From Brevibacillus laterosporus (GTDB lineage Bacteria; Bacillota; Bacilli; Brevibacillales; Brevibacillaceae): a stretch of DNA of 64,000 nt. The notes beneath the pieces were generated by a model. The model had not been told where the DNA came from and made no database searches. It was given only the letters and a program-made list of their open reading frames with translations. How positions within the stretch are numbered: the stretch's first letter is position 1; the number at the start of each line of letters is the position of its first letter. Shown one piece after another: positions 35,951-39,394 of the stretch. Position numbers and translations under genes: made by a program. Location: positions 4,830,001 to 4,894,000 of the forward strand of contig CP033464.1 in the NCBI GenBank assembly GCA_007833815.1, in the 5' to 3' direction.

Positions 35951-37171
35951 TTATTCTTCTTCATTCCACTTGTTACCATAGATTAGCATGAATTCCATAT
36001 CTAATTTTGATGGGCTTGCTCCCCCATACAATGCCTTTAAATTCTTATTTTTTTGATTATTGGTATGTGCACTGATGTAGATTTCTTCATAATCTGTTTT
36101 ATCATTGTTATTATCATCATCAACTCGTGTTACGAACATCACATGTCCAGGTACATATATGAAGTCTCCAGCCTCGATCAACTTTGGTGAAGAGGATGCG
36201 CCTCCTTGGATACCATAATCATCATTGCTGTCATTTCTAGTAATAAACTTATAAAAATATTTTGTCCCTGTCCAATTCCAAGTAGAAGTTTCTCCTTTTT
36301 TATTGGCCCACCAATCGCTTCTCATAGGGTAATCCTTTGTAGAACTATCTCTACCACCTAGTCCATACCAGATTGCTTGAGAAACAAAGTTTTGGCAATC
36401 TGTGTCTCCATAGGCTTTGAATTGGCTGTTATTGTAATTGGACGTTGAGGTAGTATTGCTACTATCCGTATACTTTTTAGCATAGTATACAGCGTCTTCT
36501 CGATCAGATGCGCTGTAACCGTCCCATCTATCCCCAGGAATTTTAAACATTGATACCTCACCTGTTCGTTCAATTTTTGCTCGTTTTTCCGCCCACGTTT
36601 GTGGAATATTCTCTTCCTTAGTTTGTTCTAAAGAAACAGTTTCCTTTCCTAGGCGTTTGAAATCAGTACCGACATCGAATAATTCTTTTAAGTTATCCAT
36701 ATATTCGTCCTTAACAATGAGCCATTCACCATTTTGATTTATCAATTCTACCTTATGGTCAATCTCATTTTCGAAAGTATCCTTGAGAAAAGAGTATTCA
36801 ATATTTTGGGTAAGTGACAATGTGACATTGGCTGTATCCCCCTTAACCTCAATATTTTTGATATCTATTTTATTTTTAAAGCCATTGATTTTAGTACCAT
36901 CTTCATTATGTGAGTCGATCAAAAATTTTGCTCGTTCGATTTCATAATCCACTATTTCTTGCACTTCTTTGTTGTCATTGTCAAACATATTTCGGAGGTC
37001 TTGTAGGCTGTCTTTATCTTTATTTTCGATAGAGGAGAGCTCTGTATCAAAATAAGATTGTAATTGGGATGTAATCTTATTTTCATCTGATTGCTTATTG
37101 GAACTTGCTAGAGACGTGACTGGAGATAGAGCAAGTCCTAAAACTGAAAGAAATAAAATACTTTTCTTCAT
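35951..37171 (-). CDS. Secreted putative amidase-domain protein (Amidase_6)
   Basis: 406 aa. Signal peptide (1-22, MKKSILFLSVLGLALSPVTS LA), a central NTF2-like or helical region (about 28-190), then the C-terminal Amidase_6/CHAP-like domain (about 215-400). The catalytic block is GDTDCQNFVSQAIWYGLGG (Cys near residue 259), and the His partner is in GHVMFVTRV. Domain members may hydrolyse peptide or glutamyl bonds at the cell surface. ATG 37171 has GGGGG upstream. The adjacent exported gene (35378) may form a pair with it. Confidence 0.85.
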   Translation of the reverse strand: MKKSILFLSVLGLALSPVTSLASSNKQSDENKITSQLQSYFDTELSSIENKDKDSLQDLRNMFDNDNKEVQEIVDYEIERAKFLIDSHNEDGTKINGFKNKIDIKNIEVKGDTANVTLSLTQNIEYSFLKDTFENEIDHKVELINQNGEWLIVKDEYMDNLKELFDVGTDFKRLGKETVSLEQTKEENIPQTWAEKRAKIERTGEVSMFKIPGDRWDGYSASDREDAVYYAKKYTDSSNTTSTSNYNNSQFKAYGDTDCQNFVSQAIWYGLGGRDSSTKDYPMRSDWWANKKGETSTWNWTGTKYFYKFITRNDSNDDYGIQGGASSSPKLIEAGDFIYVPGHVMFVTRVDDDNNNDKTDYEEIYISAHTNNQKNKNLKALYGGASPSKLDMEFMLIYGNKWNEEE

Positions 37172-38063: not shown

Positions 38064-38092
38064 TTGTAAACGACTGGGTACTGTGCTAAAAT
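38064..38092 (+). promoter_or_regulatory. Strong promoter of the macrolide phosphotransferase leader
   Basis: TTGTAA (38064-38069), 17-bp spacer, TAAAAT (38087-38092) with TG in extended -10 position. Transcription should begin near 38099, about 380 nt before the resistance gene. Confidence 0.65.
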
Positions 38093-38123
38093 CGGGTTAC
38101 TTTATAGGAACGGAGGGTTATGT

Positions 38124-38171
38124 GTGGCAAATCAATATATCCGAATGAGAATTTTGTACACTACAATTTAA
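38124..38171 (+). CDS. Candidate leader peptide with R-x-R motif (15 aa)
   Basis: GTG 38124 gives MANQYIRMRILYTTI. GGAGG (38112-38116) is 7 nt upstream. Residues 7-9 are Arg-Met-Arg, a '+x+' motif at nearly the position where macrolides stall ribosomes on ErmDL-type leaders. ATG 38120 in another frame gives a 26-aa peptide (MCGKSIYPNENF..., stop 38198-38200) with a shorter 3-nt spacing. Either could be translated. Between them and the phosphotransferase lie two terminators. Confidence 0.4.
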   Translation: MANQYIRMRILYTTI

Positions 38172-38252
38172 TAGTGCTCAAAGCCTCTGCCTGTGAGTAG
38201 AGCAATCGGGATTGGTCTGCCTTACAAGAAAACCCTATTTAGTCATATGCTG

Positions 38253-38285
38253 AAAGAGGGAGGGACGCATCTGCCCTCTTTTTTT
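38253..38285 (+). terminator. First leader terminator upstream of mph
   Basis: AAAGAGGG (38253-38260) / CCCTCTTT (38274-38281) ending in a T run. Upstream CCTCT (38184-38188) can pair with AGAGG in its 5' arm, and AACCCT (38231-38236) with AGGGTT (38114-38119) at the leader SD, giving possible alternative folds. Confidence 0.65.
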
Positions 38286-38398
38286 GTATGCCTTCTTTCT
38301 ACTGTCGCTCATCATGGACAAATAATCGTTACGCATATCTATCTATTTTCGATTCCATGACCAAGGGATTTTTTTGCGATCTCCTTTTCCAATTATCG

Positions 38399-38427
38399 AA
38401 ACACAGGCAACGAGTCTGTGTTTTTTT
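38399..38427 (+). terminator. Second leader terminator upstream of mph
   Basis: AAACACAG / CTGTGTTT (38399-38406, 38416-38423), 9-nt loop, seven T residues. It ends 53 nt before the mph start codon, with no gene in between. Confidence 0.7.
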
Positions 38428-38479
38428 GTTGTCCAGTCTAGTGAAACACCATTCTATGTAAACAAAGGGTGCATAATCT

Positions 38480-39394
38480 ATGACATCTGATCAAGAAATG
38501 CTAACCATCGCCAGGAAAAATGGTCTCATATTACAGGATACTCAGGTGGAAATAAATGAATCAGGGATGGACTTCCGTGTGGCATTCGCGAAAGATGAGG
38601 AAGGCATTTCATGGGTGTTACGCCAACCTAGACGTCAGGATGTATACAAACGTGCCGTCAATGAACACCATGTTTTGAAGCTGGTACAGAACCACCTTCC
38701 CGTCGAGATACCGAATTGGCGAATTTTCACAGAGGAGATAATCGCCTATCCGAAATTGCGTGGAATTCCAGCCGCTACGATGGATATAGAAGCAAAAGCA
38801 TATAAGTTCCAAATCGACCATCAAGCACTCCCTGCTTCTTTCATCGATTCATTAGCCAGCACACTCGCCGCCTTACATGGGATTGATCATGAACAAGCAT
38901 CGTCAGCCGGCATACGTATTCAGAATCCATCCGAAGCAAGGGAATCAATGATCAAGAGAATGGATCAGATACAATGTGAGCTAGGTGTTTCCGAAGCTCT
39001 GTGGGAGCGGTGGCAAAAATGGACTTCTGACGATACGTACTGGCCACAGCATTCTGTCCTCGTACACGGAGATTTGCACCCACCACATATTTTGATTGAC
39101 ATTGACAACCGTGTAAGTGGTCTATTGGATTGGACAGAGGCTGAGGTTTCTAATCCAGCAACAGACTTTGTACTGTATTACGCCATTTTTGGAGAGATTG
39201 CGCTTGATGCCCTACTCAAAAAATACCATGCCGCGGGAGGGCGAATTTGGCCACGAATGCGTGAACATATCATCGAACAATGGGCAGCCTATCCTGTCTT
39301 GATTGCCATGTTTGCGTTAACGACCGGAAAAAAAGAGGATATAGAGATGGCTCAAGTAGCACTCGGAGTACTTCCATCAGAAGAAAAGTCTTAA
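38480..39394 (+). CDS. mph: Macrolide 2'-phosphotransferase (Mph family)
   Basis: 304 aa. Inactivates macrolides by phosphorylating the 2'-OH of the desosamine sugar using GTP. The kinase-like fold is visible: WVLRQPRRQDVY (nucleotide-binding Lys/Arg region), VHGDLHPPHILID (catalytic loop with the HGDL Asp) and GLLDWTEAEVSNPATDF (metal-binding Asp), with IAYPKLRGIPA typical of Mph rather than aminoglycoside kinases. Mph subtype cannot be fixed by eye. ATG 38480 follows AAAGGGTG by 8 nt. It is alone on its strand and preceded by an attenuator-like leader. Confidence 0.88.
   Translation: MTSDQEMLTIARKNGLILQDTQVEINESGMDFRVAFAKDEEGISWVLRQPRRQDVYKRAVNEHHVLKLVQNHLPVEIPNWRIFTEEIIAYPKLRGIPAATMDIEAKAYKFQIDHQALPASFIDSLASTLAALHGIDHEQASSAGIRIQNPSEARESMIKRMDQIQCELGVSEALWERWQKWTSDDTYWPQHSVLVHGDLHPPHILIDIDNRVSGLLDWTEAEVSNPATDFVLYYAIFGEIALDALLKKYHAAGGRIWPRMREHIIEQWAAYPVLIAMFALTTGKKEDIEMAQVALGVLPSEEKS

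What the first reader, a model, noticed from the sequence alone, without database searches (positions are those of the whole stretch)
38064..38482. Macrolide phosphotransferase preceded by an attenuator-like leader
In order: a strong extended -10 promoter (38064-38092), an SD (38112-38116) with two alternative tiny ORFs, an intrinsic terminator (38253-38285), a second terminator (38399-38427), and then mph at 38480. One leader ORF (GTG 38124, 15 aa) carries Arg-Met-Arg at residues 7-9, like the '+x+' motif on which macrolide-bound ribosomes arrest in ErmDL-type leaders. AGGGTT at the SD can pair with AACCCT (38231-38236), and CCTCT (38184-38188) with AGAGG of the terminator stem, so mutually exclusive folds are conceivable. 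Inference: subinhibitory macrolide stalls the ribosome and relieves termination. A leader with two successive terminators would be unusual.
Basis: partly seen in the sequence, partly recalled or inferred. Interest (0 to 1): 0.78.

Follow-up and report, generated by a model that had tools for sequence, protein, structure and literature searches.

The report
Macrolide-sensing RNA switch before mph
The stretch before this macrolide-resistance gene belongs to a widespread RNA switch, of the kind known from the ermD/ermK genes, that is predicted to let the gene be read only when a macrolide stalls a ribosome on a tiny leader peptide, and related copies sit in front of several other kinds of resistance gene.

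Summary
A covariance model of seven leaders of the window's family (its own included) matches 112 of 399 genomes of the class. It also matches the leader of a predicted ErmD gene on a Bacillus licheniformis plasmid, which encodes MTHSMRLRFPTLNQ and has two terminators. So this is a new member of the ermD/ermK kind of transcription attenuator, and two terminators are usual there. Partner-swap tests support P1, P2-P4 and a pairing of the P6 5' strand with the 5' arm of the last terminator, a candidate antiterminator. Masking a stalled ribosome raises that pairing in 32 of 68 leaders and lowers it in none; in the window itself the effect is small. Nothing convincing was found for the first terminator, and complete leaders do not switch at equilibrium. 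There are no expression data; induction is inferred.

The parts
38064..38092 (+). sigma-A-like promoter (TTGTAA-17-TAAAAT, extended -10); start of transcription about 38099 (inferred)
   Evidence: -10 enriched at this place in relatives
38112..38117 (+). Shine-Dalgarno GGAGGG of the leader ORF; its GGG is in P1
38115..38119 (+). P1 5' strand GGGTT (partner 38231-38235)
   Evidence: fold; partner-swap test of the SD region with the 3' side, z -9.6, 0 of 3000 permutations
38124..38171 (+). leader ORF, GTG start, MANQYIRMRILYTTI*
   Evidence: +x+ leader ORF in 104 of 136 matches
38142..38150 (+). Arg-Met-Arg, codons 7-9, presumed arrest motif
   Evidence: +1/+2 frames hold +x+ in 1 of 208
38122..38148 (+). 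overlapping alternative ORF MWQINISE*, like the frame-1 peptide of esterase-type leaders; probably not the sensor
38126..38144 (+). P2-P4 5' strands (GGCA, ATCAAT, CCGA); partners 38206-38221
   Evidence: fold; partner-swap z -8.6
38152..38183 (+). P5 hairpin (38152-38156/38179-38183 and 38159-38163/38172-38176), over the last codons and stop of the ORF
   Evidence: pair counts
38185..38202 (+). P6 hairpin; TGCCTGTG of its 5' strand and loop (38188-38195) is the candidate antiterminator strand
38197..38220 (+). P7, alternative hairpin that replaces P6 in silico when a stalled ribosome is masked
   Evidence: P6 0.89 to 0.00, P7 0.04 to 0.91; no covariation; a like change in 19 of 92 leaders
38206..38235 (+). 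3' strands of P4, P3, P2 and P1
38253..38285 (+). terminator T1
38398..38424 (+). terminator T2; 5' arm CACAGGCA 38402-38409 complementary to 38188-38195
   Evidence: CACAG or CATAG followed by G/A in 70 of 87 far terminators against 14 of 94 near ones
38480..39394 (+). mph, macrolide 2'-phosphotransferase (APH fold)

Best explanation
The leader is a macrolide-responsive transcription attenuator of the ermD/ermK kind. Without drug the nascent RNA folds into P1-P6; P6 hides the antiterminator strand, T1 and T2 form and transcription stops before mph. A macrolide-bound ribosome stalls on Arg-Met-Arg of the 15-codon ORF and covers the 5' strands of P3-P5. The freed 3' strand can take the 3' half of P6 (P7 in this window), so that the 5' half and loop of P6 (UGCCUGUG) pair with the 5' arm of T2 (CACAGGCA) and T2 cannot form. 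Shown here: the parts, their conservation, covariation of P1-P6 and of P6 with the last terminator's arm. Computed only: the switch on masking. Inferred: stalling, antitermination, how T1 is passed, and induction of mph.
For: R1 (7 leaders of the family) matches 17 of 40 genomes of the family and 112 of 399 of the class. Leader ORFs with [RK]x[RK] in 104 of 136 matches, 29 of 34 before mph; shifted frames 1 of 208. Partner-swap on 49 leaders under 78% identical: P1 z -9.6, P2-P4 z -8.6, P6 region with the last terminator's 5' arm z -3.8, each 0 of 3000; upstream control z -0.4, coding control z 0.0. Both-side changes in 22 of 24 pairs, score 0.291 against 0.149 shuffled and at most 0.058 slid (alignment fitted to the model). 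At least one terminator in 134 of 135 leaders, at least two in 60; one shuffle each gave 51 and 12. Predicted-ErmD leader of plasmid pBL141-1: 72.3 bits, E 2.2e-17, MTHSMRLRFPTLNQ*, two terminators, P6:T2 duplex -13.4 kcal/mol. Stall mask raises the P6:T2 pairing by over 0.1 in 32 of 68 leaders and lowers it in 0; a control mask 2 and 11. Under stall the far arm pairs mainly with +70..+89.
Against: Complete window leaders at equilibrium keep T2 under the stall mask (0.97 to 0.95), and the T1 register that I measured goes 0.25 to 0.20; but the best fold of the RNA ending at T1 lacks T1 without a ribosome (its 3' arm pairs with the SD region) and has it, in another register, with the stall mask, the wrong way round. 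With T2's 3' arm not yet made, the window's P6:T2 pairing rises only from 0.003 to 0.19 (0.97 if the SD region is covered too), and a control mask over T1 raises it to 0.12. L052-L055 favour the pairing without a stall (0.88-0.96); in L092 a control mask did as much as the stall mask (0.80, 0.81). P7 shows no covariation; P6 falls in 20 and rises in 12 of 92 leaders. Nothing convincing covaries with T1. 32 of 136 leaders have no +x+ ORF by my finder. No expression data.
Confidence: 0.8

Rival explanations
1. Translational attenuation: the stalled ribosome frees the mph ribosome-binding site, as in ermC, and the terminators play little part.
For: Translational control is the usual erm mode (stated in PMC4335068), and yxjB uses both modes (PMC6851288, passages).
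Against: 308 nt and two terminators lie between the leader ORF's stop and the mph start; terminators follow in 134 of 135 relatives; the covarying complementarity is to the terminator arm.
Confidence: 0.08
2. RNA polymerase pausing and a stalled ribosome that blocks terminator folding without an antiterminator, as for yxjB, where none was identified.
For: No convincing antiterminator for T1; the equilibrium fold does not switch.
Against: T1 begins about 100 nt and T2 about 250 nt beyond the stall codons, outside one ribosome's footprint; P6 covaries with the last terminator's arm.
Confidence: 0.2
3. The leader binds the drug directly, as a riboswitch.
For: A conserved multi-helix RNA.
Against: The +x+ leader ORF is conserved; in the Listeria hflXr leader, ErmC-modified ribosomes abolish induction (PMC6310831, passages).
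Confidence: 0.02
4. mph is expressed constitutively from its own promoter beyond T2 and the leader is a relic.
For: Not excluded by any expression data.
Against: No + strand promoter-like site between 38427 and 38480 in a simple consensus scan; ORF, helices and terminators are conserved.
Confidence: 0.05

Closest known systems
ermD/ermK (Bacillus) transcription attenuator
   Same: A predicted-ErmD leader is matched by the window-family model at 72.3 bits (L192); RLR leader peptide; two terminators, the second with a CACAGGCAG arm; similar length (354 bases stated for erm(K); about 380 here).
   Different: Controls an rRNA methyltransferase; leader peptide MTHSMRLRFPTLNQ against MANQYIRMRILYTTI; start 11 against 7 bases after GGAGG.
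uORFC-6-1 motif upstream of hflX (RNA Biol 2021, PMC8632094, passages)
   Same: Bacillales, Arg-Leu-Arg uORF, covarying structure, before hflX; 27 of 135 leaders here precede hflX.
   Different: Described mainly for hflX, 51 representatives; its consensus figure is not held, so identity is likely but was not aligned.
rli80-hflXr of Listeria (PMC6310831, passages)
   Same: 14-aa RLR ORF; transcription attenuation with anti-antiterminator, antiterminator and terminator, tested by mutants there.
   Different: Its sequence was not fetched or compared here.
vmlR leader (PMC9226507, passages)
   Same: Anti-antiterminator, antiterminator, terminator; ABC-F leaders with MIN*/MIH* (L185, L187, L190) match R1 weakly.
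   Different: Tripeptide uORF, lincosamide-responsive; homology to this family is uncertain.
mef(E)/mel leader of streptococci (PMC4335068, passages)
   Same: MTASMRLR peptide, transcription attenuation; mef-like genes of Bacilli with MTASMRLR-type leaders do match R1 here (L136, L181).
   Different: The authors report no discernible homology with the erm(K) leader beyond the peptide; the streptococcal sequence was not tested here.

Membership tests
ermD/ermK-type transcription attenuator | short leader ORF with +x+ arrest motif | tested here: met
   RMR at residues 7-9; motif in 104 of 136 matches
ermD/ermK-type transcription attenuator | homologous leader RNA | tested here: met
   R1, built without it, finds the predicted-ErmD leader L192 at E 2.2e-17
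ermD/ermK-type transcription attenuator | two intrinsic terminators before the gene | tested here: met
   T1, T2; two in L192; two in erm(K) as stated in PMC4335068
ermD/ermK-type transcription attenuator | macrolide-induced readthrough | not testable with these tools
   no expression data
ermD/ermK-type transcription attenuator | mutually exclusive antiterminator | tested here: inconclusive
   P6:T2 pairing covaries and is favoured by stall masking in 32 of 68; equilibrium fold does not switch; none for T1
Rfam families | match to a curated model | tested here: not met
   no match at gathering; only FtrA at E 0.92, taken as chance
Mph macrolide 2'-phosphotransferases | full-length similarity to Mph(B)/Mph(C) | tested here: met
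   E 2.6e-97, 325.7 bits against an allele cut-off of 615, so a distinct member; activity not tested

The most novel reading that the evidence does not exclude
One homologous RNA chassis serves as a portable, programmable sensor: the same P1-P6 fold and terminator-arm antiterminator have been recruited repeatedly in front of at least nine gene families across Bacillota, while the embedded ORF is exchanged to match the drug: +x+ peptides (8-20 residues) before mph, erm, hflX, mef, msr; the tripeptide MAN* before esterases of 16-ring macrolides (13 of 14 leaders) and MIN*/MIH* before vmlR-like genes, where early-blocking drugs would be sensed; and MIDFSR*/MIDSSR* before an SDR (3 of 4) that would then be an unrecognised resistance enzyme.
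Probability: 0.45. Interest if true: 0.78.

Novelty: new member of a known kind. Interest (0 to 1): 0.6.

Why it matters
It suggests that mph, a drug-inactivating enzyme, is under the same RNA control as erm, hflX and msr genes, and that controls studied one gene at a time are copies of one RNA. A model of that RNA can be used to look for antibiotic-inducible genes without knowing the gene, as the SDR case suggests, and it makes an antiterminator for the ermD/ermK kind testable at named bases.

Tried and rejected
Rejected: a riboswitch (ORF motif conserved); CCTCT pairing with T1 (no covariation); P7 as a general feature; a T1 antiterminator in the 3' strand (z -0.1). In the scan of 22 leader windows against four arms the near terminator's 3' arm gave z -2.5 with +16..+34 at a weak -4.6 kcal/mol, and the far 5' arm z -1.7 at +40 and +88; I do not build on these.

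Led nowhere: Rfam; the window leader in plasmids (blastn, E to 1e-5) and an exact 18-base piece of it in viral contigs, no match; MAFFT plus RNAalifold gave no pair changed on both sides in class I and 2 of 24 in the esterase type, I think because the 5' half misaligns, so I used a covariance model and partner-swap tests; a first listing script stopped on a file name. In one search my hairpin finder took P7 for P6 in the window row; the fixed-offset test is the one relied on. R1 carries pairs of P4-P6 only.

Dropped rows: one class match (G318:C80) was not fetched; four loci fetched twice (L097, L101, L106, L141) were left out; L098 (contig end, APH-like fragment) and L100 (no ORF) are in the 136 but in no gene family; 12 of 104 +x+ leaders had no P6 found and are not among the 92. 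Of 23 plasmid records hit six were opened. Gene families come from ORF choice and blastp clusters, checked with NCBIfam on one member each. Many of the 136 matches are close kin; only and part of 75 and 88 use the 49 non-redundant ones. The leader tree is poorly resolved: 61 of 129 inner branches open.

Papers: passages only of PMC4335068, PMC6310831, PMC6851288, PMC8632094, PMC9226507, PMC5418344, PMC9927578, PMC8116656, PMC12704417, PMC11264731, PMC12421871; others from search listings. I saw no paper that treats these leaders as one RNA family in the listings of searches, which cover open-licence PMC papers and list only the best rows. The name ErmDL, and that ErmD-type arrest has been mapped with the middle codon of the motif in the P site (used to place the mask), are recalled; for yxjB the passages say the same.

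Full report
What is there. The window lies in a 5.76 Mb genome (G000). The gene at 38480-39394 is a 304-aa macrolide 2'-phosphotransferase, closest in NCBIfam to MphB and MphC but below their allele cut-offs, 63% identical to its nearest relative in the family and 47-49% to those of its own genus.

Conservation. The 441-base leader as a DNA query hit 20 of 40 genomes of the family at E up to 1e-3; many of these hits are just the SD and start region of esterase-type leaders. Leaders of the same design stood before mph in L034-L037 and L039, before an Erm-like methyltransferase (L033) and before HflX (L038); their ORFs include MAFIRFRFTTLAH, MLDHFSRLRTLRH, MHSARLRTLYI and MKFIRLRSNLFATN. A covariance model (R1) of seven such leaders, the window's included, matched 17 of 40 genomes of the family, 112 of 399 of the class in 50 of 145 genera (16 of the 112 are of the window's own family), and 18 of 398 of the phylum at E up to 1e-3, ten of those outside the class. 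Two of the six genomes of the genus lack mph; one of them has the leader before hflX (L038), the other has no match. Rfam holds no such family.

What it precedes. Of 136 matches read, 135 had a downstream ORF: mph 34, HflX 27, ABC-F 25, Erm 19, Mef-like 9, alpha/beta hydrolase 6, RlmA-like 5, LmrB-like 5, SDR 4, one APH-like fragment. NCBIfam on one member each gave GTPase HflX, Msr-family ABC-F, Erm, Mef(B)/Mef(A) below cut-off, macrolide esterase (NF052610, above cut-off), Erm(32)/RlmA below cut-off, Lmr(B) below cut-off, and an SDR of PRK08263 type. Apart from the SDR and the fragment these are known kinds of resistance gene. On plasmids, in six of 23 records hit, the same RNA precedes a predicted ErmD in Bacillus licheniformis (L192; 501 bases listed, no CDS in the table), Mef(F)-Msr(G) in Macrococcoides canis (L194), a macrolide phosphotransferase in Planococcus maritimus (L197), a putative RNA methyltransferase and an Msr gene in two Priestia (L193, L195) and an MFS gene in Metabacillus (L196); all six match R1 at 62-85 bits. 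On a poorly resolved tree the gene label changes 40 times, the least possible being 8, and the window's leader falls with an mph leader and an erm leader of other genera (SH-aLRT 87).

Leader peptide. A [RK]x[RK] motif stands in a leader ORF in 104 of 136 matches: mph 29 of 34, hflX 25 of 27, erm 15 of 19, ABC-F 17 of 25, rlmA 5 of 5, mef 8 of 9, lmrB-like 3 of 5, the fragment and the locus without ORF 1 of 1 each, esterase 0 of 6, SDR 0 of 4; in 31 of 49 non-redundant ones, and in 1 of 208 shifted frames. RMR occurs once, in the window. Mph leaders without the motif include MANQIPVFALIK and MAFSFRFDPLQS.

Structure. Partner-swap tests, which compare the pairing of each sequence's own strands with strands of others, gave z -9.6 for P1 and -8.6 for P2-P4 in 49 leaders under 78% identical, against -0.4 for an upstream control; P6 itself z -8.5 in 48. 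P4-P6 in the model alignment show changes on both sides in 22 of 24 pairs, on an alignment that leans to that structure.

Terminators. A terminator-like hairpin follows in 134 of 135 leaders and two or more in 60; one shuffle of each gave 51 and 12. Both a near and a far one were found in 47. The 5' arm of far terminators carries CACAG or CATAG followed by G or A in 70 of 87, near ones in 14 of 94. The P6 region is complementary to the last terminator's 5' arm, mean -11.6 kcal/mol against -6.9 for coding stretches, and covaries with it (z -3.8, 0 of 3000; coding control z 0.0). In the scan the strongest signal and by far the lowest energies lie at +64 to +88 (z -2.6 and -2.2). Changed but matched pairs include L118 and L119; the predicted-ErmD leader has the pairing too. 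Not every leader does: a number of those listed have weak or displaced duplexes (for example L069, L074, L138, L143). For T1 nothing convincing was found.

Mechanism. Masking 31 bases for a ribosome stalled on the +x+ motif, with the RNA ending at the far terminator's loop, raised the P6:T2 pairing by more than 0.1 in 32 of 68 leaders and lowered it in none; a control mask gave 2 and 11; means 0.31 (no mask), 0.55 (stall) and 0.25 (control). In the window P6 gives way to P7 (0.89 to 0.00; 0.04 to 0.91) and the pairing with T2 rises from 0.003 to 0.19, or 0.97 with the SD also covered; one control mask leaves it at 0.007, another, over T1, raises it to 0.12. Against this, complete leaders at equilibrium keep T2, and the best fold of the RNA ending at T1 changes the wrong way for T1; some relatives favour the pairing without a stall; a P7-like change is seen in 19 of 92. 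The general frame of anti-antiterminator, antiterminator and terminator is established for hflXr and vmlR; the strand named here as antiterminator was not in the passages I could read, and the ermK papers were not held.

Known or new. erm(K) has a leader of 354 bases with two adjacent terminators and peptide MTHAMRLRFPTLNQ; locus L092, found by R1, encodes exactly that peptide (before an ABC-F gene), and the predicted-ErmD leader L192 is matched at E 2.2e-17 and has two terminators. So the window is a new member of that kind. The uORFC-6-1 motif before hflX is probably part of the same family. What seems new is that these are one RNA across so many genes, and the exchange of the ORF: 13 of 14 esterase-type leaders encode MAN*, the last MANQ*, in the frame whose start spacing is that of the window ORF, while the other frame (MWQI..) varies in length and sequence. 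The Gram-positive esterase paper (PMC12704417) holds neither 'leader' nor 'attenuat' in its main text.

Noticed in passing
L007, L010, L011, L015, L018, L019: mph genes of a sister genus have another short leader ORF, ending ..GIA[FS]MRLR*, at which R1 gives no match: this suggests that mph acquired +x+ leaders more than once.
   Followed up: no
L064, L070, L137: An SDR oxidoreductase (PRK08263 type, tested on L064) stands behind this leader with peptides MIDSSR* or MIDFSR*: a candidate unrecognised resistance enzyme.
   Followed up: partly
L040-L051, L153, L155: Macrolide-esterase leaders encode the tripeptide MAN* (13 of 14 distinct sequences), like MIN* of vmlR; 16-ring macrolides could be sensed by early arrest.
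   Followed up: partly
L185, L187, L190: vmlR-like ABC-F leaders with MIN*/MIH* share the strand GGATTAGTCTGCCCATTTT with leaders of this family, read by eye, and match R1 weakly.
   Followed up: partly
L002, L003, L019: the genome search reports one stop inside the matched mph frame of these relatives; its place was not looked at.
   Followed up: no
window 35951-37171: Protein with a putative amidase domain (Amidase_6) and a signal-peptide-like start, upstream on the opposite strand.
   Followed up: no
plasmids CP031730, CP065518: Two records named Stenotrophomonas rhizophila hold this Gram-positive leader at 81% identity; transfer or mislabelled record.
   Followed up: no
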